NCBI GenBank assembly: GCA_029309925.1
Contig: JARKND010000004.1
Location: 124,001 to 188,000, forward strand
DNA length: 64,000 bases
Direction of reading: 5' to 3'
From: Fulvivirgaceae bacterium JP3-4
GTDB lineage: Bacteria; Bacteroidota; Bacteroidia; Cytophagales; Cyclobacteriaceae
Below, one piece after another: positions 22,082-62,049 of this stretch (within the stretch, counting starts at the first letter, position 1; each line of letters opens with the position of its first letter). Under the pieces are notes generated by a model. It ran no database searches, had not been told where the DNA came from, and worked only from the letters and a program-made list of their open reading frames with translations. The translations under genes were made by a program, and so were the position numbers.

Positions 22082-22091
22082 CAAACGGATC

Positions 22092-23540: not shown

Positions 23541-24412
23541 GTATGATGAAGAAAAAATATATATCACTCTTTCTGATTGCGGTAGCATCGCTGGCTGCCC
23601 CGGGTTGTTATCCCGATGAGGAACTGAACATTCCCAAGAAGGAAGTTACCGATTCGGAAGACGACCTTGATGAATTTATACAGGACCGCTTCATCGATGA
23701 GTATGGCGTTGCTGTCAGATACAAGTTTGTCGATCGCTACGTTGACCAGAATAAACGTGTGACGCCACCCAAGCTTGACGTTGTAAGGCCGATGCTTGAC
23801 TTCCTTACCGACTTTTGGATTGAGCCTTTTTCTGAAGTCGCCAATGGCGAAACGTTTTTCCGGAATCACGTGCCCGCTGAAGTCATTTTTATCGGGTCGA
23901 CCATTTACAATGCCGATGGAACCGTGACGTTAGGAACAGCAGACGCAGGTGCGAGAATTACGCTGACAGAAGTTAACTTCATCGATGTCTCCGACCGCGA
24001 CTGGATCTTCCGTCAACTTGGAACAATCTACCATGAGTTTGCCCACATCATGCATCAGCGCTACAACCTGCCTGCGAGCTGGCAACAGATCTCACCCCAG
24101 GGCTATACGTCACTCGGTTCATGGTATAACCTGACGGATGAAGAAGCGCTGCAACGCGGATTTGTTTCGCCTTACGGGACAAGCACTTTCAATGAGGATT
24201 TCGCGGAGATTGTAGCATTCTTCCTTTACGATCCCGATTTCTACGCCAAGTATATCAATGATGAAACCAATTGCGCCACAGCGGATTGTGTTTCGCGGAA
24301 TGAAGGGCGTGCAAAATTGCGCCAGAAGCTTACGGCAGTAATTGCGCATTACAAACAAAATGTTGGTGTGGATCTCGAGCAGGTTCGCGCGAGGGTGCAA
24401 GCAAGACTTTAA
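23537..24412 (+). CDS. Substrate-import-associated zinc metallohydrolase lipoprotein
   Basis: The 291-residue lipoprotein (lipobox LAAPGC, C24) has a zinc-binding HEFAH motif at residues 166-170 in the context GTIYHEFAHIMHQRYNLP. An acidic segment further on (NEDFAEIVAFFL) may supply the third ligand. It matches the family of HExxH lipoproteins encoded with SusC/SusD pairs. It most likely cleaves a peptide or other amide bond of the captured substrate at the outer-membrane surface. The start ATG overlaps the SusD stop by 4 nt; an ATG two codons further in is also possible. Glutamate- and aspartate-rich residues directly after the lipid anchor fit a surface-export signal. The substrate is unknown. 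Confidence 0.9.
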   Translation: MSMMKKKYISLFLIAVASLAAPGCYPDEELNIPKKEVTDSEDDLDEFIQDRFIDEYGVAVRYKFVDRYVDQNKRVTPPKLDVVRPMLDFLTDFWIEPFSEVANGETFFRNHVPAEVIFIGSTIYNADGTVTLGTADAGARITLTEVNFIDVSDRDWIFRQLGTIYHEFAHIMHQRYNLPASWQQISPQGYTSLGSWYNLTDEEALQRGFVSPYGTSTFNEDFAEIVAFFLYDPDFYAKYINDETNCATADCVSRNEGRAKLRQKLTAVIAHYKQNVGVDLEQVRARVQARL

Positions 24413-24415
24413 ACC

Positions 24416-25783
24416 ATGAAGAAGGCTTTTTATATTTTACTCACATTCATCGTCACTGCACTTTCATGCGATGATGACGATATACAGGTATTTGAGAAAA
24501 GTGCCGACCAGCGCGCTGCGGAAGCGATTGCAACATTGAAGGCAGACCTTATTGCACCCGCGAACGGCTGGCGCGTGAAATACAGACCTGTGGATGGCGC
24601 GGGATCTTACTACGTGCTGATGAAGTTTGGAGAGGACAACAAAGTTCGCATACAATCCGACCTTACGTCCGATGATGGTCTTTATGTAAACCAGGTGATC
24701 GGTTACCGCATTGACAATTCGCTTGGTCTTGAGCTGATCCTGGAAAACTACTCGATGTTTCATTACCTGTACGAGCAGGACCAGGCGACATTTGCTGCCG
24801 AATATGAGTTTGATTTCGTTAACAAAACCCCTGACAATGCGCTGGTATTCGTAAGCAAGTCAGACTTTTCAAACAAGACAACGATCTTATTTGAAGAAGC
24901 GTCCGCGTCCGATGTTAATCTGCTGGGAGTAACCGTGAACGAGAACCTCGGGACCTTGGCGGATGACTTTGACGCATTCCATTTGTTCAGCTCGTCATTG
25001 AAGGTGCAGTTCACGAACAAAAATATTGTTCTCTACGGAGGCATTGATGCGGCCAAACGGATCTTCAGCATCAGTGGTGCAACGCCAAAGGACAACCCTC
25101 AAAATATTCAGATCGTAAGTATTTCTACAAGTTATATTTTACAGGGAAATTCAATTGTGTTCGATACACCGATCGCGGGTAACTTCGCGGGAACGAACTT
25201 ATCGATTACCTCAATTGCCCTCAATACACTCTCCACCGGATCTGTGCAGCCTTGTGCCGACCCTACACCGATTCACATTTATTCAGGTCAGACTTCCTTG
25301 GGCGATGCAATTACGTTCGAAAGCACAATCGTCAACGCTGGGGGTACTGGTTTTACGCAGTCCACATTGTTCGTTGCGCCCATTCAGAATATTCGAAAAA
25401 GCGGAGAATTTATCTTTGACGAAATAGAACAGGATCTGCCTGGTGTGCTTGAGATGTACCTGCTCTATAATTTTTCATATCGCGGTGAGGTCATTACTGC
25501 AATGGGTTTCGCTTTGCAAAACAAAGACGGAAGCGTGACGATCGCAGTCAAGGAATTCACGCTGGCAATGCAATCGAACAAACTGACGTTCACGTTTGAT
25601 CCTGAGTTCAGATTCCTTGGCGATGAGGGATTCACCCCTGACGCAGACATCAATAACATCGATAAGTATCTGAATGCACTCACGGAGGGCAATACAACAT
25701 ACGTATTCAAATATAGTGATGGTATTTATGAGTTCAACAACCCGTGCAGCGGATGGACCTTCGCCTTTATTGATATTGACTGA
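24416..25783 (+). CDS. DUF4302 domain lipoprotein
   Basis: The protein of 455 residues starts with a lipoprotein signal (TFIVTALSC, C18) followed by an acidic DDDD tract typical of surface-exposed Bacteroidota lipoproteins. The family landmarks are the N-terminal helix with ADQRAAEAIATLKADLIAPANGWRV, cut here by a beta strand YRPVDGAGSYYVLMKF. The rest is beta-rich with no catalytic motif. DUF4302 proteins are regularly the last gene of the SusC/SusD/metallohydrolase set, so it is probably a substrate-binding accessory. It begins 3 nt after the metallohydrolase stop, in the same operon, and ends at a bidirectional terminator (25798-25835). The function is inferred only from context. Confidence 0.88.
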   Translation: MKKAFYILLTFIVTALSCDDDDIQVFEKSADQRAAEAIATLKADLIAPANGWRVKYRPVDGAGSYYVLMKFGEDNKVRIQSDLTSDDGLYVNQVIGYRIDNSLGLELILENYSMFHYLYEQDQATFAAEYEFDFVNKTPDNALVFVSKSDFSNKTTILFEEASASDVNLLGVTVNENLGTLADDFDAFHLFSSSLKVQFTNKNIVLYGGIDAAKRIFSISGATPKDNPQNIQIVSISTSYILQGNSIVFDTPIAGNFAGTNLSITSIALNTLSTGSVQPCADPTPIHIYSGQTSLGDAITFESTIVNAGGTGFTQSTLFVAPIQNIRKSGEFIFDEIEQDLPGVLEMYLLYNFSYRGEVITAMGFALQNKDGSVTIAVKEFTLAMQSNKLTFTFDPEFRFLGDEGFTPDADINNIDKYLNALTEGNTTYVFKYSDGIYEFNNPCSGWTFAFIDID

Positions 25784-37598: not shown

Positions 37599-37925
37599 CT
37601 ATCCAAACTTTAACTGTGGAATGAGTTTCCACATGTCCATGCGTGATTCTTTCAGTGCGCGAAGCATGGCAAGGCCTGCATTCGTAACTTTAAAAATCCG
37701 CTTGCGCCTGCCGCCTCGTGAATTAGTCGCTCCGCCCATTGACGATTTTACATAACCTTTGTCTTCCAGCCGGTAGAGCGTGACGTGTACGGCACTTAAA
37801 TTTACACGTCTCCCCACCCTTTCTTCGATCTCGGTCACGATGGCATTGCCGTACGCTTCTTCCTGCAGTATACCGACCATGGTAAGCACCAATTCTTCGA
37901 ATTCACCAAGATATTCCTTTCCCAT
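37599..37925 (-). CDS. PadR-family transcriptional regulator
   Basis: This 108-residue winged-helix protein has the PadR landmarks EELVLTMVGILQEEAYGNAIVTEI split by a turn, the recognition helix region NLSAVHVTLYRLEDKGYV, and a beta wing SMGGATNSRGGRRKRIFKVT. The C-terminal dimerisation helix is short, as in subfamily 2. PadR proteins are repressors relieved by small lipophilic compounds or peptides. The gene leads the permease operon (3-nt gap), and its own promoter region holds a palindrome (37955-37980) that is a good autoregulatory operator candidate. Confidence 0.93.
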   Translation of the reverse strand: MGKEYLGEFEELVLTMVGILQEEAYGNAIVTEIEERVGRRVNLSAVHVTLYRLEDKGYVKSSMGGATNSRGGRRKRIFKVTNAGLAMLRALKESRMDMWKLIPQLKFG

Positions 37926-38287
37926 TTGTATATAATTTGTAAGACTAATCTACTATTAGTATATATTTTGTCATACTAATCGGCTGTAATTATTGTCGCC
38001 TGTCCGATATCAGGCTGTGAACCAGCTATTTAGCTCGTATATTTTTGTAAAAGATTTTCATCATTTCGGGTATTTATCGTGGAATAATGCCATCAATCGT
38101 GTAATCCGGACAGGCATGAAAGAAAATTAAAACTCCTGCGTTAGGTTCGCGTCACGAAAAAAGATCTGATGGTTGAACGTAAAGGGTTGAGTCATGAACT
38201 GAAGGGCACGAGTACAACGTCTGTAGCAGCTTTACATCTTTTTTATTTTATTTTTTAACACGCCATTACCTGGCCTAAACCAACACA
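37926..38287. other. Intergenic region between padR and the beta-helix block
   Basis: Apart from the padR operator candidate, this 362-nt stretch shows only AT-rich DNA with T-runs around 38236-38260 directly before the first lipoprotein gene. No small gene or structured RNA is supported. Confidence 0.4.
37944..37980 (-). promoter_or_regulatory. Palindromic operator candidate upstream of padR
   Basis: Perfect 8-bp arms ATTAGTAT (37955-37962) and ATACTAAT (37973-37980) flank 10 nt. A third half-site ACTAAT (37944-37949) forms another dyad with ATTAGT at 37955-37960. All lie within 55 nt of the padR start, where a PadR dimer would be expected to bind. Confidence 0.55.
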
Positions 38288-38677
38288 ATGATGAGAATCA
38301 ATTATCGTAATGCTAAGTCCGAAGTTAAAGCCTCTGTGTTTTTTGTAGCATCTCTTTTCTTTATGGCAAGTTGCCAGGAAAACGAAATGCAGGAAATCAC
38401 CGAAGATGTAGCTACTTCAGCAACGGCTGTTGAAGGAGAATCAAATGTAGGAAGTATCACTATTGAAGGTGCGAATACACAATTCAGCGACAACGTGGAA
38501 TGCAGCACATGTACATACGTAGTTGCAGAAGACATTGAAACGATCGATGGTAAAGAACTTGGCCTTGCCCCGGGAAGTGTAATCTGCCTGGATGCAGCTA
38601 AGAAATATGGCAACCTGACGTTTGTCAATGTAGAAGGCACTGAAGAGGCACCGATCACGATCGGCACTTGTAAATAA
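38288..38677 (+). CDS. Small lipoprotein made only of the beta-helix family's N-terminal cap
   Basis: The product has 129 residues. A lipoprotein signal (FFMASC, C29) and an acidic, serine-threonine-rich spacer precede a 60-residue module CSTCTYVV, then IDGKELGLAPGSVICLDAAK, then NLTFVNVEGTEEAPITIGTC, ending at CK. The same module (CxCTYxVP, IDGxxLGxKPGxxICL, FxNxxGTxxxPIxIxNCGG) opens the three full-length lipoproteins downstream, and here the protein stops just at the cysteine where their beta-helix begins. There is no leftover helix sequence after the stop, so it looks like a designed single-domain protein rather than a broken gene. It starts 23 nt before the next gene's ATG and is probably cotranscribed with it. 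The function is unknown. Confidence 0.82.
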   Translation: MMRINYRNAKSEVKASVFFVASLFFMASCQENEMQEITEDVATSATAVEGESNVGSITIEGANTQFSDNVECSTCTYVVAEDIETIDGKELGLAPGSVICLDAAKKYGNLTFVNVEGTEEAPITIGTCK

Positions 38678-38700
38678 TTATTAATCCATAAAATTTTCTG

Positions 38701-40101
38701 ATGACAATTGTAAAGAGACCCACTCTCCTGCTAAAACTTTGTGTGTTGCTGATCGCGAGCGCGTTCATTCGCTGTTCCGAAGACGAGATTTTCGAGGAGG
38801 AAATCACGCTTGAGGAGGATTTAGTTACAAGAGCTGCCGCTGACTGCGGGTGCACTTACACTGTGCCATCGAAGGCATGGGTGGTGGACGGAGCAACGCT
38901 GGGGATCAAGCCGGGTGCTGTGATCTGTTTAAGTGCCACCAACACTTACTATAATGTTCTGTTCAGAAATCTGAAAGGTACGGCTACCAGTCCGATCACA
39001 ATTAAAAACTGTGGCGGCACTGCGGTGCTGAATGCTACAGGAAAAGGTTACGGTCTGAAGACTGAAAAAAGTCAGTACATCAGGATCACGGGTGGCAGCG
39101 GAAGCACTTACGGGATAAAAGTAGTCGGTGGACAGCAAGGCGTTTCACTTGAAGGACTAACCACTTACGTGGAAGCCGACCATTTGGAGGTTGCATCATC
39201 AGGATTTGCGGGCTTTATGGTGAAGACCGAGCCAACCTGCGACAACGCGACTATCCGTGGTAACTTTGTCATGAGAAATGTTTTCCTTCATCACAACTAT
39301 GTTCACGACACAGGAGGCGAAGGTTTCTATGTAGGTCATACGTTTTACCTGAAGGGCATCAGCACACCTTGTGGGATTCGCCTGCCACACATTCTTGAAA
39401 ATGTCAAGATCCACGATAACGTGATCAAAAATTCAGGCTGGGAATCGATCCAGGTAGGTTCAATCCCCGGTGGCGTGCAAGTGTACAACAACCGCATCGA
39501 AAATTACGGAGTGAAAAATGTTCAGTATCAGAACAACGGTGTTCAATTCGGTGAAGGTGCTCCCGGCAAGTTTTACAATAACTACATCAAAGGGGGCAAA
39601 AACATTGGATTGTTCATTCTCAACAACGGTGACAACACGGTGTATAACAATATTATTGTTAACACTGGTGGCGATGGAATTTTCTGCGATGATAGGACAG
39701 CAACGGGTCCTGGCTTCAAGTTCATAAATAATACGATTATCAATCCCGGAGCTAACGGAATAACGCTGTACGCTGACCAGGTGGTAATGAATTACGTCTA
39801 CAACAACATCATCGTTAATCCAGGTGCCTACACGAAGTACACGTATCCACGCAGCGGAAATGATGCTTATGTATACTTGTTGAGCAAGACGATGCGCGCA
39901 ACACAGGGTAACAATCAGGTCACCCGCGATATCAGCACGTTGAAGTTTGTCAATCCCGGTGCTTTTAATTATGCACTTACAAGCACGTCACCAGTGATCA
40001 ACAAGGGTTACAACATTTCCGCGTATAGCATCACCGTTGACTACGCTAATGAGCCTCGCCTCATCGGAAGTGGATACGACATCGGTGCTCATGAATATTG
40101 A
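38701..40101 (+). CDS. Right-handed beta-helix surface lipoprotein, paralogue 1
   Basis: The 466-residue product has a lipoprotein signal ending FIRC (C25) and an acidic EDEIFEEEITLEED spacer that fits surface export. The cysteine cap (CGCTYTVP ... IKPGAVICL ... NCGG, about residues 46-104) is followed by a parallel beta-helix with many N-asparagine turns (NNYIKGG, YNNIIVNTGGDGIFC, INNTIINPGANGI). The conserved motif HDTGGEGFYVG and NSGWESIQVG recur in all paralogues at the same place. The C-terminus ends YDIGAHEY, the 'choice-of-anchor Q' type of ending seen in secreted beta-helix proteins. The fold suggests polysaccharide binding or lyase activity, but no lyase catalytic pattern can be confirmed. 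A terminator follows at 40133. Confidence 0.88.
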   Translation: MTIVKRPTLLLKLCVLLIASAFIRCSEDEIFEEEITLEEDLVTRAAADCGCTYTVPSKAWVVDGATLGIKPGAVICLSATNTYYNVLFRNLKGTATSPITIKNCGGTAVLNATGKGYGLKTEKSQYIRITGGSGSTYGIKVVGGQQGVSLEGLTTYVEADHLEVASSGFAGFMVKTEPTCDNATIRGNFVMRNVFLHHNYVHDTGGEGFYVGHTFYLKGISTPCGIRLPHILENVKIHDNVIKNSGWESIQVGSIPGGVQVYNNRIENYGVKNVQYQNNGVQFGEGAPGKFYNNYIKGGKNIGLFILNNGDNTVYNNIIVNTGGDGIFCDDRTATGPGFKFINNTIINPGANGITLYADQVVMNYVYNNIIVNPGAYTKYTYPRSGNDAYVYLLSKTMRATQGNNQVTRDISTLKFVNPGAFNYALTSTSPVINKGYNISAYSITVDYANEPRLIGSGYDIGAHEY

Positions 40102-40132
40102 TTTCAGTTTTTAGTTAGTATTTGGTTTAATC

Positions 40133-40160
40133 AAGCCTCGCAGAAATGCGGGGCTTTTTT
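40133..40160 (+). terminator. Terminator after beta-helix paralogue 1
   Basis: The stem AAGCCTCGCA / TGCGGGGCTT (one G-T pair) on a GAAA loop is followed by six T residues, 32 nt past the stop codon. It separates the cap-gene/paralogue-1 unit from paralogue 2. Confidence 0.88.
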
Positions 40161-40362
40161 ATGCCCATAGCAATGGCCGCCTGCACGGCTCATTTTTTTT
40201 ACACACAGCCGCTTTCTTACATTATACAATAAGCGGCCATATTAAAAAGTTTTACAGCCGCTGGTTTAGCATCTTGCGTAAGCTTAACCCTATGCCTATG
40301 TAAACTAACCTGACTCCGCTGTCTCCTGGCTTTCGTCTGTCAAATTAAACCCCACACTTATC

Positions 40363-41769
40363 ATGAAATTGACCTCCACCCCACTGAAGGTTGTCGCCTA
40401 TGCGTTTGCGCTAACTATAGCCTTCTCGTGTCAGACACAAGAAGAATTCGAGCCTCTTCCTGATGACGAGGAAATCAAGACTCACATCAATTCAGTCACC
40501 GACTGCTCAACGTGCACGTACGTGGTGCCTGAACGCACCCATGTGATCGATGGAATAATACTCGGACTGAAACCTGGCGACAGGATTTGTCTCAATTCCA
40601 CAACAGCATACAAGAATCTTCTTTTCAGAAATATTGTCGGAACGGCCGAGCAGCCGATAGTGATTACCAACTGCGGTGGTACAGCCACCCTGAATGCAAC
40701 CGGAATGTCCTTTGGATTGAAGACTCAAAACTCGAAGCATTTTCGTCTTACAGGCGGGTCGGTGGCGAATAGTTACGGGATTAAGGTTGTCAACGGCCAC
40801 ATAGGGCTTGCGTTAGGCGACCTCTCGACAAACTTCGAAGTCGACCACGTTGAAGTGATGGGTTCCGGCTTCGCAGGCATTATGGCGAAAACCGATCCCA
40901 GCTGTGATCCGGCAACGTCCCGCGAGAATTTTATCATGAAGAATGTGAACCTCAACTACAATTATGTCCATGATACCGGAGGCGAAGGATTCTATGTTGG
41001 CAATTCATTCTACCAGGCGGGCGTCAATACGGATTGCGGAATTCGTTATCCTCACGAAATACATTACCTCAGACTTTTCAACAACATTGTAAAAAATTCT
41101 GGTTGGGACGGAATTCAGGTTGGATGTGCTACGGTGGGCGCTAAGATCTACGGAAACACCATTGAGAACTACGGAACGATGAACCAGTATAATCAACGAA
41201 ACGGAATGCAACTTGGTGAAGGCACGGGTGGACTTTGCTATGGTAATTTCATCAAGCAGGGAACTGGTTCAGGTATGAACGTGCTCGGCCTGGGCACGAA
41301 TGTGATTTACAACAATGTGATTGTGGATACAGGTGACATGGGAATCTTCTGCGATGAGCGTTACACAACAGGCACAGGATTCAAATTCATCAACAACACC
41401 ATCGTCAATCCGAAAACCGATGGAATCCGGCTTTATGCGGAGAAGGTTGCGATGAACGTTGTGATTAATAACATTATCGTGAATCCAGGAAACTATGTGA
41501 AGTATGTTTATCCTCGTGTTCCAGCTGACGCGTTTATCTATAAATTGAGCAAGGACGTGAAGATTGATCTGCGCAACAACTTCTTCACGACATCGATCAG
41601 TGATGTGCAGTTCATCGATCCGCTTACAAACAACTACCGGCTGGCGCTGACATCGCAAATGATCGACAAAGGCGCGGACATCAGCAGTTGGGCAATCGGT
41701 ACCGACTTCTACAAGAAATCAAGAATGCGCGGTCTCGGGTACGACATCGGTGCAGCGGAGTATCAATAA
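40363..41769 (+). CDS. Right-handed beta-helix surface lipoprotein, paralogue 2
   Basis: The 468-residue lipoprotein (IAFSC, C23) has the same build: acidic spacer, cap with CSTCTYVVP, LGLKPGDRICL and NCGG, then the beta-helix with HDTGGEGFYVGNSF, NSGWDGIQVG and NGMQLGEGTGGL. The end is YDIGAAEYQ. Two cysteines in DPSCDP and TDCGIRYPHE are shared with paralogues 1 and 4 and may form a disulfide that staples the helix. It has its own upstream region (after the terminator at 40133) that includes a small hairpin GCCGCTT / AAGCGGC at 40208-40237. Its stop codon directly abuts that of the FkbM gene on the other strand, with no base between. Confidence 0.88.
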   Translation: MKLTSTPLKVVAYAFALTIAFSCQTQEEFEPLPDDEEIKTHINSVTDCSTCTYVVPERTHVIDGIILGLKPGDRICLNSTTAYKNLLFRNIVGTAEQPIVITNCGGTATLNATGMSFGLKTQNSKHFRLTGGSVANSYGIKVVNGHIGLALGDLSTNFEVDHVEVMGSGFAGIMAKTDPSCDPATSRENFIMKNVNLNYNYVHDTGGEGFYVGNSFYQAGVNTDCGIRYPHEIHYLRLFNNIVKNSGWDGIQVGCATVGAKIYGNTIENYGTMNQYNQRNGMQLGEGTGGLCYGNFIKQGTGSGMNVLGLGTNVIYNNVIVDTGDMGIFCDERYTTGTGFKFINNTIVNPKTDGIRLYAEKVAMNVVINNIIVNPGNYVKYVYPRVPADAFIYKLSKDVKIDLRNNFFTTSISDVQFIDPLTNNYRLALTSQMIDKGADISSWAIGTDFYKKSRMRGLGYDIGAAEYQ

Positions 41770-42642
41770 CTAAGCGGCTTTACGGACGCCTGTTTCGATC
41801 TGATATTTTTTCTGCAGTGGAATCACCGCTTCCTCCGGAATGAAAAACACATTGTAGTTTTTCGTTCCTGAGCGGAGGGTGTCACCTCTCAAGATGAACG
41901 GCTGGTATTCGAGTGCGTACAGAAAGTCGAGTTCACGATGGGCCGGACTTTCCATCAGAATAACTGGTCGCGCTTTTCGGATCGTCTCCTCGCCTCCGCG
42001 CAGAACTTCATACTCAAAACCCTGCACATCGATCTTAATGAAACAAGGAGAAAGTCCAAATTCGTCAAGGCGTTTTACCTGGCATCGAACCTTTTTAACA
42101 TCCAGCTTCTTTTCAGAATAACCGTATAAACGGTTGCGCAGCCAATCGCGCGCGTTCTGCTCTTTGAACGATGCAAGTCCGTCAAACATGTACTGATTGT
42201 AAAACGGGACATACAAATCGAATTGACTTGAAACATCCCCAAGACCGTAATTAAAAATTTTCACCCGATCATCGTTGCCATATAGCCGGTTGAGCTTGCT
42301 CGCCAGATATCCATTGGGTTCAAAAGCGAAAACTTTACTGTCCGGCTGACGCATAAGGATTGACTGAATTGCATCGCCACGATTGGCCCCGATGTCTATG
42401 AACACGTTGTTCTTCGGATTTGAAAACAGGGTGACCAATTCGAATTCTTTCTCATGAGTCCGGTCCATCACTGACCGGATTGTGCGTTGAACGGAGAACT
42501 TGAGATCTTGTGCGAATGGAAAATGTACCTGGATCGATCTGAAAAATTTCAAGACTGTTCTATTCATAAGGCCTTTTTTAAAACCGAAATCGGTTGAAAT
42601 GTCAGAAGAAAAATCATGCCGTTCATCTTTAATGAGGCGCAT
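41770..42642 (-). CDS. FkbM-family methyltransferase
   Basis: The 290-residue protein carries the SAM-binding motif NNVFIDIGANRGDAIQSI followed by KVFAFEPNGYLASKL, KIFNYGLGD and CFIKIDVQGFEYEVLRGG, the standard FkbM series. There is no signal peptide or membrane segment, so it acts in the cytoplasm, normally O-methylating sugars or lipid-linked intermediates. It sits inside the beta-helix block in the opposite direction, stop to stop with paralogue 2 and 62 nt divergent from paralogue 3. A link to a methylated surface glycan bound by the beta-helix proteins is possible but is inference. An internal ATG (MNRTVLKFF) is an alternative start. Confidence 0.9.
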   Translation of the reverse strand: MRLIKDERHDFSSDISTDFGFKKGLMNRTVLKFFRSIQVHFPFAQDLKFSVQRTIRSVMDRTHEKEFELVTLFSNPKNNVFIDIGANRGDAIQSILMRQPDSKVFAFEPNGYLASKLNRLYGNDDRVKIFNYGLGDVSSQFDLYVPFYNQYMFDGLASFKEQNARDWLRNRLYGYSEKKLDVKKVRCQVKRLDEFGLSPCFIKIDVQGFEYEVLRGGEETIRKARPVILMESPAHRELDFLYALEYQPFILRGDTLRSGTKNYNVFFIPEEAVIPLQKKYQIETGVRKAA

Positions 42643-42704
42643 GATCTTCGCATAGCAGCAGTTGGAATGAAATTAGTACAGGTAGCTGCGCACCAGAAAC
42701 TCTT

Positions 42705-44108
42705 ATGATATTTGCAAAAAACCGCTTATTCGGCCATTCTTCGCTGGTCATCATGTTCCTATTGGCGATCACATCTTTGCACCGCGACAACTTCCCGGAG
42801 ATCAAAGAAGATTTTTCATGTGCGGAGTGTGATTACATCGTAAAGGGCTATCACAACGATGGCAGGAAAATTCCGATCTTCCCTGGCCAGGTGATATGTT
42901 TTGACGCCTCTCTCAAATATAAAACGGTGAAGCTTTCTCACATCAAAGGAACGAAGTTAAAGCCTGTGGTCATCCGCAACTGTGGCGGTGTAGCGACCAT
43001 ATCGGAGGGACTACGGGTTGAAAACTCGGAGCATTTCCGTCTGCTGGGCGATGGCGCATCGAACGCACAATACGGTATAAAGATCCAAACGCACAAGAGC
43101 TTCTATGCGTCATTTGAGATGTTCACTACCGACTTCGAAGTAGCATTCGTAGAAGTTGCCGGATATAACAAGAACGGTGAAGGAGAAGGCTCTGGCTTCG
43201 CTGGCTTCGGGATTAAGACAAGCCCTTACCAGGATTGCCAGCTCTTCAGCGATTCCACCCGACAGGCCTGGGTGATGCGCAATGTCAACGTTCACCACAA
43301 TTGGGTTCACGATGTTGGTGGCGAAGGAATGTACATCGGTCATGGCTTCTACAGCGGACGCAAAGAACAAAAATGTCCGTTCAAAACCTGGTCGCATTCT
43401 ATCAAGGGTTTCAGGCTTCATCACAATCTTGTTGAAAACACGGGTTGGGATGGCATTCAGGTTAAGAACGTTGATGAAGACTGCGAAGTGTACAATAACA
43501 TCATCCGCAACTATGGAACGAGAGGACACCGGGCACACAACGAAGGGCTGATGATTGCTGACGGTGTAACCGGAAAGGTTTACAACAACCTTATCGATAC
43601 AGGAACAGGACATGGTATTATGTTCCAGGGAATGGGCAACAACGACATCTTCAACAACATCGTGTTAAATGCGGGAGAAGATGGGTTCAACGGTACGGCT
43701 AGTGTAATGGGCCTATACCTTCCGGACGGCTATTACAGGATATTTAACAATACGATATACAATTCGGGCGAAGACGGATTTACATTCTTCAGTGCAAGAG
43801 GCGGAGAAAAACTCATCATGAACAACCTGGTGATCAAAGCTGGCGGAAAGCTTTACCCGAAAGGTGCTCCCGTCACGCTTTCAAACAACATCTTTGTCCA
43901 GGATACCACGCTTGTCGATTTTGCAAAAACGCATATCGCGAGTTTTGACAGCGGGCTAATGGATAACATCATTCTGGAGCGTTATCCGGCAACGATCAAC
44001 AAGGGCACAGACGTCCGTACATATCTTCCGACATTGACTTTCGATTTCTATAACCGCAAGAGACCGCAAGGCGGTGCGTTCGATATTGGCGCAATCGAAT
44101 ATGAATGA
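42705..44108 (+). CDS. Right-handed beta-helix protein, diverged paralogue 3 without lipobox
   Basis: The 467-residue product shares the cap (CAECDYIV, FPGQVICFDAS, IRNCGG) and helix motifs (HDVGGEGMYIGHGF, NTGWDGIQVK, YDxGA-type end FDIGAIEYE). It lacks a lipobox: the N-terminal hydrophobic segment SSLVIMFLLAITSL is followed by HRDNF with no cysteine. It may be released to the periplasm, stay membrane-anchored or use another start. Insertions (NKNGEGEGSGF) also set it apart. Its start lies 62 nt from the divergent FkbM start, so both may share a control region. It is the most distant member of the family here. Confidence 0.86.
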   Translation: MIFAKNRLFGHSSLVIMFLLAITSLHRDNFPEIKEDFSCAECDYIVKGYHNDGRKIPIFPGQVICFDASLKYKTVKLSHIKGTKLKPVVIRNCGGVATISEGLRVENSEHFRLLGDGASNAQYGIKIQTHKSFYASFEMFTTDFEVAFVEVAGYNKNGEGEGSGFAGFGIKTSPYQDCQLFSDSTRQAWVMRNVNVHHNWVHDVGGEGMYIGHGFYSGRKEQKCPFKTWSHSIKGFRLHHNLVENTGWDGIQVKNVDEDCEVYNNIIRNYGTRGHRAHNEGLMIADGVTGKVYNNLIDTGTGHGIMFQGMGNNDIFNNIVLNAGEDGFNGTASVMGLYLPDGYYRIFNNTIYNSGEDGFTFFSARGGEKLIMNNLVIKAGGKLYPKGAPVTLSNNIFVQDTTLVDFAKTHIASFDSGLMDNIILERYPATINKGTDVRTYLPTLTFDFYNRKRPQGGAFDIGAIEYE

Positions 44109-44451
44109 TTCAGAATAGCTGAGAAGTGATTTTCTGAAATCTTTTTAAATTTTTCACATTGCTGACTTTTCACCTGCGACTTTTCGACAGCGTCCGTGCA
44201 GTTCATCGCCACTGATCGTGACTTATTACTTACCTGAATAAAGTTTTGATATTGATCATCAAAAAATCTTAGTCTTTGTCAAAAAGCTTACATCGCTACT
44301 TCATGTAAAAAATTGCCGGTACCAACAGCGCTGCGTTAAGTTCTTTTGCATCATCATTTTGCTAGCAAAGGAATGATAACAAAAAAAGCCCGCTAGTTAT
44401 TTTTTAACCTGCAACCTACTTCCCTCGAGTAATTGCATAACCTGAAGTTAG
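44109..44451. other. Intergenic region upstream of beta-helix paralogue 4
   Basis: This AT-rich stretch of 343 nt holds no supported gene. A short palindrome TTTGCTAGCAAA lies near 44360. A TTATTTTTTAAC word before the start also occurs upstream of the cap-only gene (about 38248), which may hint at shared control, but no clear -33/-7 pair is visible. Confidence 0.35.
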
Positions 44452-45858
44452 ATGATGTTTCAAGAAAAGATTGCACCTTTTTTCAAAGCCCTCTCATTTG
44501 CCATTGCGGCCACGATCATTTTCTCTCAATGTTCAACCGATGACATTCTTGAAGAAGAGGAACTGACCGAAGACATGAAAACCTCAGCCAAGAGCACAAG
44601 CTGCGGATGTACTTACACCGTTCCATCAAACAAAAATCTTATCGATGGCAGGGTACTTGGAATCAAACCCGGAGCAGTGATCTGTCTTAGCGCAGCGAAC
44701 AGCTATAAAAATCTGAATTTCCAGAATATCGTTGGAACGTCAACAGCCCCCATCACGATCCGGAACTGCGGAGGAACAGCTGTTATCAATGCAACAGGAA
44801 TGACCTACGGTATTAAGTTCGGGAAGAGTAAATACTTCCGTATCACAGGAGGTAATACAGACGGTGTCTACGGAATCAAAATTCAAAGCGGTCACATCAA
44901 CATGTCTCTCGAAGCACTGACTACCGACTTTGAAGTAGATCATATTGAAGCGATCTCTGCAGGGTTCGCAGGAATTATGGCAAAGACCGATCCGACATGC
45001 GATGCTGCGACAACCCGCGGTAATTTCACCATGCGCAATGTTTCGATTCATGACAACTACGTGCACGACTGTGCGGGTGAAGGATTATACATCGGAAACT
45101 CGTTTTACAAGAATGGTGTATCCACTTCGTGCGGCAGAAAGTATCCTCATGAAATCCACTACCTGAAAGTTTATGATAATAAGATAAACAATTCCGGATG
45201 GGAAGGAATCCAGATCGGTTGTGCCACGGTTGGAGCGGAAGTTTATGGCAACTCAGTGGAAAACTACGGAAAGAAAAATGCCGCAGCGCAAAACAATGGT
45301 GTACAACTTGGCGAAGGAACGGGCGGAAAGTTTTATGCAAACTTTATCAAGTCGGGACCTGGAAACGGACTGATCGTTCTCGGACTTGCAGACAATGTCA
45401 TTCACAACAATATTATCGTGAATGCCGGTGCAAGCGCAATCTTCTGTGATGACCGATTGAGCACAGGAACTGGGTTCAAGTTTCTCAACAACACATTGAT
45501 CAACCCGAAGCAGGACGGCATCCGAATCTATGCAGAGTATCTGAAGAATGTTGTGATTAACAATATCATTGTGAACCCGGGCAGTTATACAACTTACACA
45601 TACCCCCGGACTGCAAATGACTCATATGTGTATAAGATCAGCAGCAAAGTAAATCTCGAGATTGCTAACAACTATTTTACACGCAGCATTACTGCGCTGA
45701 AGTTCGTGGGATACACAAGCGACAACTACCGGCTAACAAGTACATCACCTGCCGTAAACAAAGGCAAGAGCATTTCAACTTTTGCTATCGCGAAGGACTT
45801 CTACCAGGATCTGCGATTGCAACTCGGCTCGTACGACATTGGAGCAAGCGAATATTAA
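44452..45858 (+). CDS. Right-handed beta-helix surface lipoprotein, paralogue 4
   Basis: The 468-residue lipoprotein (FSQC, C27) has an acidic spacer, the cap (CGCTYTVP, LGIKPGAVICL, IRNCGG) and the same beta-helix with HDCAGEGLYIGNSF, NSGWEGIQIG and NNGVQLGEGTGGKF. It ends YDIGASEY. It is closest to paralogue 2 in the middle and to paralogue 1 in the cap, which suggests exchange between copies. The conserved H-D-x-x-G-E-G-x-Y-x-G motif at the same helix turn is the best candidate for a binding or catalytic site. The expected location is the outer face of the outer membrane. A strong terminator follows directly. Confidence 0.88.
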   Translation: MMFQEKIAPFFKALSFAIAATIIFSQCSTDDILEEEELTEDMKTSAKSTSCGCTYTVPSNKNLIDGRVLGIKPGAVICLSAANSYKNLNFQNIVGTSTAPITIRNCGGTAVINATGMTYGIKFGKSKYFRITGGNTDGVYGIKIQSGHINMSLEALTTDFEVDHIEAISAGFAGIMAKTDPTCDAATTRGNFTMRNVSIHDNYVHDCAGEGLYIGNSFYKNGVSTSCGRKYPHEIHYLKVYDNKINNSGWEGIQIGCATVGAEVYGNSVENYGKKNAAAQNNGVQLGEGTGGKFYANFIKSGPGNGLIVLGLADNVIHNNIIVNAGASAIFCDDRLSTGTGFKFLNNTLINPKQDGIRIYAEYLKNVVINNIIVNPGSYTTYTYPRTANDSYVYKISSKVNLEIANNYFTRSITALKFVGYTSDNYRLTSTSPAVNKGKSISTFAIAKDFYQDLRLQLGSYDIGASEY

Positions 45859-45862
45859 AGCA

Positions 45863-45893
45863 AAAAGGTCCTGAGCAGTCAGGACCTTTTTTT
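45863..45893 (+). terminator. Terminator after beta-helix paralogue 4
   Basis: A perfect AAAGGTCCTGA / TCAGGACCTTT stem on a GCAG loop is followed by further T residues, a few nt past the stop codon. Confidence 0.92.
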
Positions 45894-45931: not shown

Positions 45932-46201
45932 ATGAACTTACCAAAAGTTGTAATCAAAGATAATTTTAGTGACTATCTCGATGGCAAGGAAGTCAAAGCA
46001 GCCTTTATCAGTCAGACAAAGGACCAGGCATGGCCCGGTGAGCATGTGATGGCGTTCAAAGATGCAATTGCCGCTGGTACGAATCTTACGGTTCCAAAAT
46101 CACAGCAGTCGCATTACATCGGTATCGAAGGCACCATTACCGAGGTTGTCAATGATCCGGCTGCAAACAGCACAAAGTTCGTGAAGGTCAAAAAAACCTA
46201 A
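45932..46201 (+). CDS. Small unrecognised cytosolic protein
   Basis: The 89-residue product (MNLPKVVIKDNFSDYLDGK to KFVKVKKT) has no signal or membrane segment and a mixed alpha-beta composition. A middle stretch FKDAIAAGTNLTVPKSQQSH may be a loop. Base composition and amino-acid make-up are like those of real genes here. It starts 73 nt after paralogue 4 and behind a terminator, so it is probably its own unit, and it converges on the permease gene with a 20-nt gap. No family is recognised. Confidence 0.65.
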   Translation: MNLPKVVIKDNFSDYLDGKEVKAAFISQTKDQAWPGEHVMAFKDAIAAGTNLTVPKSQQSHYIGIEGTITEVVNDPAANSTKFVKVKKT

Positions 46202-49980: not shown

Positions 49981-51474
49981 TTAAACGGAAAGTCTTCTTC
50001 TCGATCCAGTCTGCACAGTCGATGCGGACAATTCGTGGCTTATTAACACCTCACGGTATGGCAGATCGTTAGTGTCAAGTGTCGCAAATCGTGTTGGCGA
50101 TGATTGGGCTGGCGCTGTTACGCGCTCAAACCTGATATCCATTTCGCCATTCAGGCCAGCGGTTGTGTTTGTCACGACCAGCTTCATGTCATCATACTTC
50201 GTTCCTCCTTTGTTGTCGGTCACCGTCAATCTGAAGTAGTAAGTTCCGGCAACAAGGTTCGATGCCCAAAGCTTCGATGTCGTTGTGTTTGACATTGAGA
50301 TGCTCGGTCCGGAAACTTTCGTCCACTTGTATGATGCGATATAGCCATCCGGATCAGAAGCAGTGCCCACGATCGTCATCCCTTTGTTCGTAGTTGACTT
50401 ATCAGAGCCTGCACTCACTACCGGCAACTTATTCGTTGTTGACGTAGATGAAGACACTACGACTTTTACATCATCATACTTCGAAGCGCCTTTGTTGTCC
50501 TTCACAGTCAGTCTGAAGTAATAAGTTCCCGCAGGCATATTAGACGTAGTAAGTTTCGAGGACGTTGTGCCGCTCATAGTACACGAGCTTCCGCTGGTTT
50601 TGGTCCACTGATAGGAAGCGATTGTTCCATCAGGATCAGATGCCGTACCGTCAAGGGATGTATAGTTGGTTGGAAGGTAGACTGTCTTGTCGGATCCAGC
50701 GCTTACAACGGGCACGGCATTCGTAGTTGTTGTCGTTCCTCCCGATGTTGTACCGTTGGTGAAGCTTAGCATCCAGCTGAGTGCAGTCGTCTCTTTATAT
50801 ACCTTGTCCCAGATGACGTGGCCCATGCCCGGGAAAATTGTAAACTTTGCCAACGGACTAGGCTTCGGAGTAGAAGCATTGATCGCGGTGATCATCTTTT
50901 GTGTCACTGTATATGACACAACATAATCCTTATCACCATGGAATCCCCAGGTCGGAACATTTTCCTGCGCAAGCTTATAAGCTGAACCCAACAAATTATA
51001 TCCAGTACAGATCGGCAGAATAGCAGCCCAGGTTGCAGGATAGGCCGTAGCAACTGACCACACACCTCCTCCACCGAGACTGAGTCCGGTCAGGTAAATT
51101 CTTCTGTTATCAATACGGAGATATTTTTTCACGTGATTCAACACATCCATTACATAGTCTCCCGTCCACTTGCCCATTGAAGTTTTAAGCTGTGGAGAAA
51201 TGAGAATGAAGGGATACTGCTGCCCGTACTTCACGTATTTCGGAAGTCCAACGTTGTCAACAAGCTCAAGAGAGCTGAGCGTGTTACCCTTCTCTTTGAT
51301 CCCGTGAAGTGAAATCACGATGGGATAAAGATTTGAATTCGAATTGTACCCTTGCGGAAGATATTCAAGATATCCGATTCCGCCTGAAGTCATTTTTGCT
51401 GTTTGTTGTGCGAAGGTTTGTGAAAACAGCAAGCTGGCTGCAACAACCAGGAGGCAAGTGATTTTGATTTGCAT
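49981..51474 (-). CDS. Secreted esterase-like alpha/beta hydrolase with two PKD-like domains
   Basis: The protein of 497 residues begins at ATG 51474, directly before a signal peptide (ITCLLVVAASLLFSQTFAQ); an upstream GTG at 51522 is less likely. The N-terminal half is a polyhydroxybutyrate-depolymerase/feruloyl-esterase-like hydrolase with YLPQGY, ISLHGIKEKG and nucleophile S132 in YLTGLSLGGGG, and an expected histidine in FPGMGHVIW. Two PKD/REJ-like domains follow (VVSAGSDKTV, VVSAGSDKST). Unlike its larger paralogue at 59308 it ends RRRLSV without a recognisable type IX sorting domain, so its final location is uncertain. The substrate is an ester, perhaps of plant or microbial polymers (inference). 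Confidence 0.9.
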   Translation of the reverse strand: MQIKITCLLVVAASLLFSQTFAQQTAKMTSGGIGYLEYLPQGYNSNSNLYPIVISLHGIKEKGNTLSSLELVDNVGLPKYVKYGQQYPFILISPQLKTSMGKWTGDYVMDVLNHVKKYLRIDNRRIYLTGLSLGGGGVWSVATAYPATWAAILPICTGYNLLGSAYKLAQENVPTWGFHGDKDYVVSYTVTQKMITAINASTPKPSPLAKFTIFPGMGHVIWDKVYKETTALSWMLSFTNGTTSGGTTTTTNAVPVVSAGSDKTVYLPTNYTSLDGTASDPDGTIASYQWTKTSGSSCTMSGTTSSKLTTSNMPAGTYYFRLTVKDNKGASKYDDVKVVVSSSTSTTNKLPVVSAGSDKSTTNKGMTIVGTASDPDGYIASYKWTKVSGPSISMSNTTTSKLWASNLVAGTYYFRLTVTDNKGGTKYDDMKLVVTNTTAGLNGEMDIRFERVTAPAQSSPTRFATLDTNDLPYREVLISHELSASTVQTGSRRRLSV

Positions 51475-51859
51475 TCTTCTCAAATTTGAACGTGGTCGCT
51501 CCTCGCAAACAGAGTGATCCACACGTTAGGTGGTAAATAAAATTGTTAAGTGTACTTACATAATGAAAGAGCAAATCCGATGATGGCATGATAATTTTAT
51601 CATGTCAGGTGACTATAAAATCATCGTAGTTGCTTTTCTCAGAGACTGCTATCCTCGCCATGGATAGCCACCAGCACGCATTCTTTTTTCAATTGATGGC
51701 TCAAAGAAAGAGCTAAAACCCGTTTGCGCAATTTCCAATCAGATAAGTGGGCCTATGTTTCGAAGACTTGCGGATATTGGAGATTAGTGTTCTGACATTA
51801 ATGAGAATTAATCTCTGCAAAGTAATTTATCATGTGGAGCGCGCGACTGTAGAATTTAA
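51475..51859. other. Intergenic region with a dyad
   Basis: This 385-nt stretch between the esterase and FMN reductase genes holds the 18-bp dyad listed at 51587. No gene is supported. Confidence 0.4.
51587..51604. promoter_or_regulatory. Perfect dyad upstream of the esterase gene
   Basis: CATGATAA and TTATCATG form perfect 8-bp arms around a 2-nt centre, 113 nt before the esterase start codon. The length and symmetry fit a dimeric regulator site. No T-run follows, so it is not a terminator. Confidence 0.4.
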
Positions 51860-59307: not shown

Positions 59308-62049
59308 TTACCTCACATAAACTTTCCCACTCTCCATGCGCTTACCCTGACGGATAACATTGTAAATGTATAGTCCGCTATGGTTCATCACCTCGCGCTG
59401 ACTTGTTGCTGACCAGTTGCCGGCATAAATCCGTTCTCCTGCCTCGTTGAAGACAATTACCGTTGCAGCTTCAAGCTGAGATTCGGAGAGGTCACCCAAA
59501 ATCTTCTCTTCCTCTGATTCCATTACAAGAACCTCGGCTTCTTCGGCTGCAAAGTTCGCTGCAGCGGTTGAAAGATCCTGAACAACGAGTTTCATATCAT
59601 CGTAACGCGTTCCTCCGGCATTGTCCTTTACGGTAATTCGAAACACATACGTTCCTGCAATGAGATTGTAAGCCCAGAGTTTCAGGGTTGTCACATTGCT
59701 CATGGGAGCTGCAGGGCCAGAGATCTGCGTCCATTGGATTGATGCGATTGTTCCGTCTGAATCTGAAGCCGATCCCACGATTGTAATCGCTTTCGTTGGA
59801 AGGGTGATTGTTTTGTCTGAACCCGCAGAAACTGTTGGGAGAATATTCGGTGTCGGCTCCGGGGCAACAACGAGTTTTACATCATCATAGGCAGAAGTTC
59901 CCTTGTCGTCTGTCACAGTGAGGCGGAATGAATAGGTTCCCTCCACCAGGTTAGATGCGAATAGGCTTGACGTGGCAGCGTTGCTCAATGAGGCTGTGGG
60001 GCCTGCAATTTTCGTCCAGTTATAAGACGCTATTGTTCCGTCTGAATCAGTTCCAGAGCCAACGATCGTGATCGACCGCGTTGGCAACGTAATCGTTTTA
60101 TCAGGACCGGCATTGGCAACAGGAGCTACATTCGGATACGTTGTCTGCGTTGACTCGCTCTTCACGGTGAGGATCATGTCATCCGAACTTTTACCACCGA
60201 GATTATCGGTAACGGTGAGGCGGAAGGAATAAACGCCCTCCACAAGATTGTAAGCCCAAAGCTTTGATGTTGTCGCATTGCTCATGGACGCAGCAGGACC
60301 GGAAATTTTTGTCCAGGCGTATGAAGCGATTGTACCATCTGCATCAGTTGCAGATCCAACAATTGTGATTGCCTTTGTGGGCAGTGTTATCGTCTTGTCC
60401 AGACCAGCCTTCGCCACCGGTGCTATGTTATTTGTCGGGGCAGGATTTACTGTCACTGTTACATCATCAGACTTTTGACCGCCATCGTCATCAGTGGCAG
60501 TTACGCGGAATATATAAGTGTCCTGTCCTAATGCTGAAAGCGCCAGTCTAGCTGTATTTGCACCTGTAAGCGTAGCTGTGCCTCCGGAGACTTTTGTCCA
60601 GGCAACGGAAGCAATTGTGCCATCACTGTCTGTTACAGTTGCAGTGAGGGAAAGTGAACTTGTCGGAAGGGTAATGGTTCTATCCGGTCCAGCACTGACA
60701 GACGGCAATGCGTTTGGCGCAGGGTTCACTGTTACCGTCACGTCATCTGATTTTGTCGCACCTGCGTTGTCAGTTACGGTGACACGGAACACGTATGAAC
60801 CTTCAACCATAGCTGTTGTCGACAATGTTGAAGAGGACGTGCCCGTGAGTGTTGCTGTGCTTCCGGAAACTTTTGTCCATGCATAGGATGCAATGGTGCC
60901 ATCACTATCACTGGCAGTGGCGGTGATCGAAGTCGAGTTAATGGGAAGTGTGATCGTCTTGTCGGCACCAGCGCTCACCGTTGGCAGTGTATTCTGGTAT
61001 GTGCTGCTCACATTTATTTTCACATAATCAGAATCGGTTATGCCGGCATTATCAGTAACCTTGAGACGAAACGTATACGTGCCCGTCACAAGATTCGAGA
61101 GTGCAAGCGCTGATGTGGCGCTGTTGGCAAGACTTGCTGTATTGGGGCCGCTCAGTTGTTCCCACAGATAACCAACGATGCTTCCATCAGCATCTGTCCC
61201 CGATCCAGTCAGCGTTGTTCCACCAGGAGCTACATTCTTGTCAGGACCAGCATTTGCAACCGGAACCTTCGAGCCTTTTTTAGTTGTATTGGTAAACGAG
61301 GTAATCCACTGATAGAGGTTCGGATTGTGAACTGAGTTGTCAGTCTTGTAGGCTTTAGACCAGGCGTTGTGGTTGACACCAGGATAGAGTGTCATTTTTG
61401 CGAGCGGACTTGGAGCTGGCACACACGCGTTGATCGCATTCACCATGTTTACACTTCGCGAATAAGGCACGGTCGTGTCTGAGTCACCATGGAATGCCCA
61501 GACCGGTACATTCTCTGCAGCGATGCCGCAGGCCTTTGTCGGGGAGTTGTATCCACCGCAGACCGGAGCGATGGCTGCAAAAAGTTCAGGATAATCCTGA
61601 GCAGTCACCCACGTTCCACCGCCACCAAGGCTGAGGCCGGTCAAATAGATTCTTCGTTCGTCAATCCTTAAGTATGTTTTGATATGGTTGATAACCTCCA
61701 CTACATAAGATGATGGCCAGGTGCCGTAATTGTCTTTCAATTGTGGTGAAATGAGAATGAAGGGGAATTGTGTTCCATTCTTCACATACATCGGAGGCCC
61801 GAGCTTCGCCACTTCATAAATACTCGCCTCCAGTTTCACAGGGTCAGTGGTGTTTGGGCCACGTTCACCAACGCCATGGAGGAAAATCATCACCGGGTAC
61901 TTATCAGAATTGTTCGCATAACCCTGGGGTAGGTACTCGTAGTAAGCGATGGTAGAAGGTTTCGTTGTTTTAAATACTTGTTGCGCCTGAAGAGCAGTTG
62001 CAAAAACGGTTAACGTTAGACAAAACAGAATTTTTGCAGCGTGTCTCAT
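59308..62049 (-). CDS. Secreted esterase-like hydrolase with six PKD-like domains and type IX sorting domain
   Basis: The 913-residue protein has a signal peptide (ILFCLTLTVFATALQAQ) and an N-terminal esterase/depolymerase-type domain (YLPQGYANN, IFLHGVGERGP, nucleophile S140 in YLTGLSLGGGG, histidine in YPGVNHNAW). Six PKD/REJ-like domains follow (each opening like VSAGxDKTITLPT, with a TDSDGTIASYxWTK core). The type A type IX sorting domain covers about the last 70 residues (VIVFNEAGERIYAGNW to GLYIYNV and SGKVYVR). It is exported and attached at the surface. It is the larger paralogue of the gene at 49981, which shares the catalytic half but has two PKD domains and no sorting domain. The substrate is unknown. 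Confidence 0.93.
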   Translation of the reverse strand: MRHAAKILFCLTLTVFATALQAQQVFKTTKPSTIAYYEYLPQGYANNSDKYPVMIFLHGVGERGPNTTDPVKLEASIYEVAKLGPPMYVKNGTQFPFILISPQLKDNYGTWPSSYVVEVINHIKTYLRIDERRIYLTGLSLGGGGTWVTAQDYPELFAAIAPVCGGYNSPTKACGIAAENVPVWAFHGDSDTTVPYSRSVNMVNAINACVPAPSPLAKMTLYPGVNHNAWSKAYKTDNSVHNPNLYQWITSFTNTTKKGSKVPVANAGPDKNVAPGGTTLTGSGTDADGSIVGYLWEQLSGPNTASLANSATSALALSNLVTGTYTFRLKVTDNAGITDSDYVKINVSSTYQNTLPTVSAGADKTITLPINSTSITATASDSDGTIASYAWTKVSGSTATLTGTSSSTLSTTAMVEGSYVFRVTVTDNAGATKSDDVTVTVNPAPNALPSVSAGPDRTITLPTSSLSLTATVTDSDGTIASVAWTKVSGGTATLTGANTARLALSALGQDTYIFRVTATDDDGGQKSDDVTVTVNPAPTNNIAPVAKAGLDKTITLPTKAITIVGSATDADGTIASYAWTKISGPAASMSNATTSKLWAYNLVEGVYSFRLTVTDNLGGKSSDDMILTVKSESTQTTYPNVAPVANAGPDKTITLPTRSITIVGSGTDSDGTIASYNWTKIAGPTASLSNAATSSLFASNLVEGTYSFRLTVTDDKGTSAYDDVKLVVAPEPTPNILPTVSAGSDKTITLPTKAITIVGSASDSDGTIASIQWTQISGPAAPMSNVTTLKLWAYNLIAGTYVFRITVKDNAGGTRYDDMKLVVQDLSTAAANFAAEEAEVLVMESEEEKILGDLSESQLEAATVIVFNEAGERIYAGNWSATSQREVMNHSGLYIYNVIRQGKRMESGKVYVR

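What the first reader, a model, noticed from the sequence alone, without database searches (positions are those of the whole stretch)
38288..45858. Tandem family of capped beta-helix surface proteins, a candidate undescribed system
Four full-length right-handed beta-helix proteins share a 60-residue N-terminal module (CxCTYxVP, IDGxxLGxKPGxxICL, NCGG) that is not a known named domain to me, plus two invariant helix motifs: H-D-x-x-G-E-G-x-Y-x-G and N-S/T-G-W-D/E-x-I-Q. Three are surface-type lipoproteins with acidic spacers. Each copy, apart from the first pair, has its own upstream region, and strong terminators end paralogues 1 and 4. This suggests separate, possibly differential expression of variants, as in systems that vary surface binding proteins.
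Basis: partly seen in the sequence, partly recalled or inferred. Interest (0 to 1): 0.7.

Follow-up and report, generated by a model that had tools for sequence, protein, structure and literature searches.

The report
Surface beta-helix proteins for sugar polymers
A soil bacterium carries four related surface-type proteins that look like sugar-polymer-processing enzymes, plus a tiny sister protein made of only their first section; relatives elsewhere often sit among genes that build the cell's own slime, so this is probably an uncharacterised polysaccharide-handling family rather than a variable surface-coat system.

Summary
Four intact right-handed beta-helix proteins (466-468 aa) and a cap-only 129-aa lipoprotein lie at 38288-45858 in a Chryseosolibacter-type genome. 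The cap is not a separate new domain: AlphaFold2 shows it as the first coils of the helix, and profiles align it with the first coils of GH136 and PL6 enzymes (weak alone). The two motifs fall on consecutive coils. A variable surface-protein system is not supported: the same order stands at the same site in C. histidini, with copies 1 and 2 clearly and copy 4 probably orthologous. Best reading: an uncharacterised glycan-processing or glycan-binding family. Relatives are fused to an alpha/beta-hydrolase (20 of 79 loci), follow a GT2 glycosyltransferase gene (29 of 79), and lie within 25 kb of that GT2 in 6 of 10 related genomes; the window array itself is not near it. The stand-alone cap lipoprotein is unusual: four copies in 3 of 3 genomes of the genus seen, none confirmed in 193 other family genomes (one match cut by a contig end), under purifying selection.

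The parts
38288..38677 (+). stand-alone cap lipoprotein (129 aa): signal peptide, Cys, acidic spacer, extra strand pair, cap; ends one residue after the fourth cap cysteine
38701..40101 (+). beta-helix copy 1 (lipoprotein type), 23 bp after the stand-alone cap gene; clade with C. histidini L009:4242-5660
40133..40156 (+). intrinsic terminator-like hairpin after copy 1
40363..41769 (+). beta-helix copy 2 (lipoprotein type); pairs with C. histidini L009:6009-7478
41770..42642 (-). FkbM-family methyltransferase, convergent with copy 2 and divergent from copy 3
42705..44108 (+). beta-helix copy 3, deep separate clade, no lipobox Cys; pairs with C. histidini L054:7842-9242, which lies elsewhere in that genome
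44452..45858 (+). beta-helix copy 4 (lipoprotein type); structure predicted; nearest row C. histidini L009:7917-9440
44602..44775 (+). cap of copy 4 (residues 51-108): first coils of the beta-helix with the CxC, IC and NC cysteines
45064..45096 (+). motif HDxxGEGxYxG of copy 4 (residues 205-215)
45190..45213 (+). motif NSGWEGIQ of copy 4 (residues 247-254), next coil
45862..45891 (.). terminator-like dyad after copy 4
37599..37925 (-). small regulator (PadR-like by eye, no family search was run on it), divergent from the stand-alone cap gene; at this place in all three species
49981..51522 (-). alpha/beta-hydrolase + PKD protein of the kind that is fused to this beta-helix in other bacteria
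59308..62049 (-). second alpha/beta-hydrolase + PKD protein of that kind

Best explanation
The four proteins belong to an uncharacterised family of secreted right-handed beta-helix proteins that act on polysaccharide. Their fold is nearest to GH136 lacto-N-biosidases and PL9/PL6 lyases. I think they bind and most likely cleave or modify a polysaccharide in a groove on one face of the helix, lined by K178, H205, E210, Y213, D/E251 and Q254 (numbering of copy 4), in some lineages together with a secreted alpha/beta-hydrolase that would remove acyl groups. In this bacterium three copies and the stand-alone cap are lipoproteins, probably on the cell surface. The likely substrate across the family is a self-made exopolysaccharide. 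Shown: fold prediction, conservation, fusions, gene neighbourhoods. Inferred: catalysis, substrate, surface location, and that the window copies share the substrate of the relatives. The stand-alone cap is inferred to be an accessory subunit (docking or folding partner) for copy 1 or for the hydrolase.
For: Fold: pLDDT 91 overall, about 98 in the domain; Foldseek best hits GH136 7v6i and 5gqc (E 1.5e-9, 1.1e-8), then PL9 Pel9A, PL6, chondroitinase B; profile hits GH136 6kqs 4.7e-6 and GH87 7c7d 1.4e-5. Conserved polar cluster on consecutive coils in 96 relatives. Hydrolase link: fused in 20 of 79 loci, fused or in the held stretch in 24 of 79. The own genome has 14 matches to the hydrolase; the three close ones (54-100% identity, the next 39%) are the two window genes and one that ends 17 bp before the second stand-alone cap gene. 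Other partners: malectin, PA14, PKD, type IX tails. Exopolysaccharide link: GT2 gene directly upstream in 29 of 79 loci, methyltransferase downstream in 28, FkbM in 19; two further GT2-type and two GT1/GT4-type glycosyltransferases upstream in L066; GT2 within 25 kb of a beta-helix in 6 of 10 related genomes (0.17 expected); all 10 genomes with a strong beta-helix hit have the GT2 against 18 of 49 others (Fisher p 2e-4). The fifth beta-helix protein of this genome lies in a flippase/Wzy/glycosyltransferase locus beside PorP/SprF.
Against: No family model for a named enzyme was hit, only generic Beta_helix, NosD and choice_anch_Q. Foldseek TM-scores are modest (0.51-0.55 at best among the top hits, rmsd 7 or more), as is common between beta-helices. 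Profile alignments stop before the GH136 catalytic Asp pair, so no known active site was matched. The window array is not near the GT2: another contig in this genome and in both other Chryseosolibacter drafts (in C. indicus the array's contig is only 32 kb, so linkage there is not excluded). 55 of 79 loci show no hydrolase in the stretch held. Five genomes with only weak beta-helix hits were counted among the 49; three of them have the GT2.
Confidence: 0.55

Rival explanations
1. Non-catalytic glycan-binding scaffold or adhesin: the beta-helix holds polysaccharide at the cell surface (a matrix-binding protein), and the conserved cluster is a ligand site or structural core.
For: Fusion with PKD arrays, malectin and PA14, and in this genome a 2032-aa relative next to PorP/SprF, a build like large type IX adhesins; several lipoprotein copies kept side by side.
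Against: Invariant E210 and Y213 and near-invariant K178, H205 and Q254 in 96 sequences look more like an active site; the nearest folds are enzymes.
Confidence: 0.22
2. Degradation of foreign (plant or microbial) polysaccharide for food: hydrolase and beta-helix proteins form a surface degradation set beside the SusC/SusD-like pair of the window.
For: SusC/SusD-like genes at 18776-23540, conserved at this site in both other species; hydrolase-PKD proteins nearby.
Against: The SusC/SusD set carries Peptidase_Mx1 and DUF4302, not glycoside hydrolases, and ends about 13 kb before the array; elsewhere in the family the neighbours looked at are biosynthesis genes.
Confidence: 0.15
3. Variable surface-protein system with differential or phase-variable expression.
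For: Separate upstream regions and terminators; several paralogues in tandem.
Against: Same order at the same site across species; third-position-biased divergence as under purifying selection; only weak inverted repeats.
Confidence: 0.04

Closest known systems
GH136 lacto-N-biosidases (LnbX, BsaX, ErLnb136)
   Same: Closest solved fold, same kind of N-terminal coil, and a second gene product or domain needed for activity (PMC7335108, passages)
   Different: The partner there is an alpha-helical domain that embraces the helix; here the small neighbour is a copy of the first coils. The catalytic Asp pair could not be aligned.
PL6 alginate lyases / chondroitinase B and PL9 Pel9A
   Same: Right-handed beta-helix; cap aligns with the first coils of PL6 enzymes; Foldseek hits
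   Different: About 10-15% identity; calcium and Lys/Arg active sites not tested
Vibrio RbmB, a lyase of the matrix polysaccharide (title and start of abstract only, PMC11637428)
   Same: Polysaccharide lyase acting on the cell's own matrix polysaccharide; Foldseek hit at E 1.1e-3
   Different: No sequence match seen; a hydrolase partner is not known to me
AlgG/AlgE alginate epimerases
   Same: Beta-helix; AlgG works in exopolysaccharide making (recalled); weak profile hits, E 0.1-0.9
   Different: Not significant
Type IX-secreted PKD/CHU_C adhesins with PorP/SprF
   Same: The fifth family member of this genome is of this build
   Different: The window copies have no PKD or type IX tail

Membership tests
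Pfam Beta_helix PF13229 | profile score over the gathering cut-off | tested here: met
   48.4, 44.4, 34.1, 33.9 bits against 25.9 for 4 of 4 full copies
GH136 | catalytic Asp pair (D568/D575 in ErLnb136) | tested here: inconclusive
   profile alignments end at chain position 513-514, before the pair
GH136 | alpha-helical partner subunit GH136I/LnbY | tested here: not met
   the adjacent small protein is predicted mostly beta, with one helix of four residues; other places in the genome were not searched for such a partner
PL6 / PL9 lyases | Lys/Arg active site with calcium-binding acidic residues (recalled) | not tested
   no residue-level structural alignment was available
Surface-exposed Bacteroidota lipoprotein | signal peptide, Cys, then polar and acidic residues (export signal, PMC5080379 passages) | tested here: met
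   copies 1, 2, 4 and the small protein, by eye; copy 3 does not; no predictor and no experiment
Phase-variable surface protein system | recombination sites, recombinase, or shuffled order between relatives | tested here: not met
   order kept; weak inverted repeats only; no recombinase in 26 of 38 window proteins scanned
Type IX secretion cargo | C-terminal CHU_C or Por_Secre_tail domain | tested here: not met
   absent from the window copies; over the cut-off in 9 of 12 relatives scanned (L118 below its cut-off, L023 and L015 none)

The most novel reading that the evidence does not exclude
The stand-alone cap is a surface-anchored starter coil: a lipoprotein that offers the first turns of a beta-helix as a docking edge, so that full-length helices or secreted hydrolase-PKD proteins assemble on it at the outer membrane and form a surface complex that finishes (deacylates and trims) the cell's own exopolysaccharide.
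Probability: 0.12. Interest if true: 0.75.

Novelty: new variant of a known kind. Interest (0 to 1): 0.45.

Why it matters
It would give a function lead for a large group of proteins that carry only the generic beta-helix label, tie them to exopolysaccharide making in Bacteroidota, and pose a testable question: why a bacterium keeps a separate gene for just the first coils of a beta-helix.

Tried and rejected
Bacteroidota promoter pattern TTTG-N17-21-TAnnTTTG (recalled): 3 matches in the window, none at these genes; 14 of 100 shuffles had as many. Rfam: no match in the window. Defence library: no match for the five proteins. Phages: no match for the small protein; plasmids: two distant records for copy 4. 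Small protein against NCBIfam: SP_0198 lipoprotein at E 0.0048, 16.8 bits against a cut-off of 100, taken as chance. Fold search of the small protein: nothing at E <= 0.001; the closest local match by rmsd is GH136 6kqt, 39 columns, rmsd 1.8, E 4.7. Idea that the small protein is a truncated relic: rejected because of four copies, three of which end within two residues after the fourth cap cysteine (the C. indicus one has another end), and pN 0.16 against pS 0.78 in the cap (synonymous sites saturated). Idea that FkbM travels with copy 3: only suggestive; the C. histidini counterpart lies next to a PMT_2-type glycosyltransferase, and in G009 a sugar transferase stands one gene away. Paper search on beta-helix with PKD, esterase and type IX secretion: none.

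Rows dropped or not used: one search kept the best 80 of 111 confirmed matches (79 loci). The 96-row alignment leaves out hits under 150 bits, with incomplete model cover, or with a repeated segment. The cap alignment used 44 of 89 cap stretches plus the 4 stand-alone ones. The central alignment used 32 of 96 rows. Of the 150 neighbour proteins listed, 10 were sent to a family search. In one search at most 21 first-look candidates per genome were scored. The tree is of the quick kind.
Full report
What is there. The window holds five related genes on the + strand: a 129-aa lipoprotein (38288-38677) and four full-length proteins of 466-468 aa (38701-40101, 40363-41769, 42705-44108, 44452-45858), with an FkbM methyltransferase on the - strand between the second and third full copies. 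Pfam Beta_helix passes its cut-off in all four. Three full copies and the small one look like surface lipoproteins by the rule Cys, polar residue, acidic residues (by eye; rule from PMC5080379, passages); copy 3 lacks the Cys. Hairpins follow copies 1 and 4.

Where it lives. The two other held genomes of the genus have contigs of the same lengths as Chryseosolibacter indicus PWU20 and C. histidini PWU4, so I take the window for a third member of that genus. The site is shared: in all three species the small gene stands next to the same divergent small regulator and is followed by one full copy (C. indicus) or three (C. histidini). In a quick tree, copy 1 falls in a starred clade of three with its C. 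histidini counterpart and a C. indicus gene, copy 2 pairs with its counterpart (starred), copy 4 has its counterpart as nearest row but in a weak, unresolved group (87), and copy 3 belongs to a distant clade whose C. histidini member is elsewhere in that genome. Copy 3 and FkbM therefore seem to have been added between copies 2 and 4, or lost there by C. histidini. This kept order speaks against a shuffling system.

What the cap is. AlphaFold2 on copy 4 with 96 sequences gives pLDDT 91 and places the cap as the first coils of one continuous helix. A family profile aligns it with positions 273-330 of the GH136 enzyme 6kqs (whole match 4.7e-6, the cap stretch alone 0.079). For a cap-only profile the five best hits are PL6 or GH136 enzymes, at the start of their helix domain, but at E 0.03-0.2 only. 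So the cap is not a new domain, although its cysteine pattern seems particular to this family.

Fold and conserved residues. Foldseek against the PDB ranks GH136 lacto-N-biosidases first (E 1.5e-9, TM 0.51), then PL9 Pel9A, PL6 lyases and chondroitinase B. In 96 sequences C183, E210 and Y213 are invariant, and K178, H200, H205 and Q254 are kept in 90 to 94. By the predicted strands, H205-E210-Y213 and W250-E251-Q254 sit at matching places of consecutive coils. That is a cluster on one face, judged from strand order and not from measured distances. All four window copies keep K178, C183, H205, E210, Y213 and Q254.

Links to an alpha/beta-hydrolase. Some relatives carry an alpha/beta-hydrolase and PKD domains on the same chain: 20 of 79 loci have the hydrolase fused, 24 of 79 fused or within the held stretch, 55 of 79 neither. 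In this genome the hydrolase search finds 14 matches; the three close ones (54-100%) are the two window genes at 49981 and 59308 and one that ends 17 bp before the second stand-alone cap gene. Their G-x-S-x-G, Asp and His are present by eye.

Links to exopolysaccharide making. In 29 of 79 loci, all Bacteroidales, Bacteroidia or Bacteroidetes by record title, the beta-helix gene follows directly on a GT2 gene; a SAM methyltransferase follows it in 28 of 79 and an FkbM gene stands upstream in 19 of 79. In L066 two further GT2-type and two GT1/GT4-type glycosyltransferases lie upstream. I then looked for that GT2 in ten related genomes with strong beta-helix hits: it lies within 25 kb of a beta-helix gene in 6 of 10 (0.17 expected under random placing). 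All ten have the GT2, against 18 of 49 other relatives (Fisher p 2e-4, relatedness not corrected; the 49 include five genomes with weak beta-helix hits). The fifth beta-helix protein of this genome (2032 aa, 16 PKD stretches, CHU_C) lies in a locus with a flippase, Wzy, glycosyltransferases, a hexapeptide acyltransferase, a Wzz/tyrosine-kinase-like protein (scores below the cut-offs) and PorP/SprF. Against this, the window array itself is on another contig than the GT2 in this genome and in both other Chryseosolibacter drafts.

The stand-alone cap. It occurs four times in the three genomes of the genus seen. Among 196 family genomes searched, every other match that covers the cap lies in a frame of over 440 aa, save one cut by a contig end (G010). 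Between the window and C. histidini its cap part shows pN 0.16 against pS 0.78, so it is kept by selection. AlphaFold2 (48 sequences, only four of them over the N-terminal part) gives residues 51-129 at pLDDT 87-97, with two extra strands (54-62, 64-70) made of a stretch that the four stand-alone forms share and the window's full copies lack; the C. indicus full copy has a similar run. I read it as a self-contained small domain. Its function is open. GH136 shows that a beta-helix enzyme may need a second gene product (PMC7335108, passages), but that partner is alpha-helical.

In print. A search for beta-helix, N-terminal cap, stand-alone and lipoprotein gave 4 papers with three of the four terms, none on this by title; choice-of-anchor with beta-helix gave one; beta-helix with exopolysaccharide in Bacteroidota none. 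These searches cover only the held open library.

Verdict. A real, conserved family with an unusual small member; most likely glycan-processing or glycan-binding surface proteins, not a variable surface-protein system. Catalysis, substrate and the role of the small protein are inferred.

Noticed in passing
37926-37982: The stretch next to the divergent small regulator holds ATTAGT/ACTAAT repeats that are conserved in all three species, a possible operator of that regulator.
   Followed up: partly
18776-25783: SusC/SusD-like pair with Peptidase_Mx1 and DUF4302 proteins, at the same site in the other two Chryseosolibacter species.
   Followed up: partly
4350-13943: A 3197-aa PKD/SprB-repeat protein with a CHU_C type IX tail.
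   Followed up: no
45932-46201: An 89-aa ORF after copy 4 without any family match above a cut-off.
   Followed up: no
L046, L058, L066 and 26 other loci: Recurrent gene order (FkbM in 19), GT2, beta-helix, methyltransferase, mostly followed by a hybrid histidine kinase, in Bacteroidales and unclassified Bacteroidetes; may be an undescribed exopolysaccharide system.
   Followed up: partly
L115:3613-9711: 2032-aa beta-helix + PKD + CHU_C protein next to PorP/SprF inside a Wzy-type exopolysaccharide locus of the same genome.
   Followed up: partly
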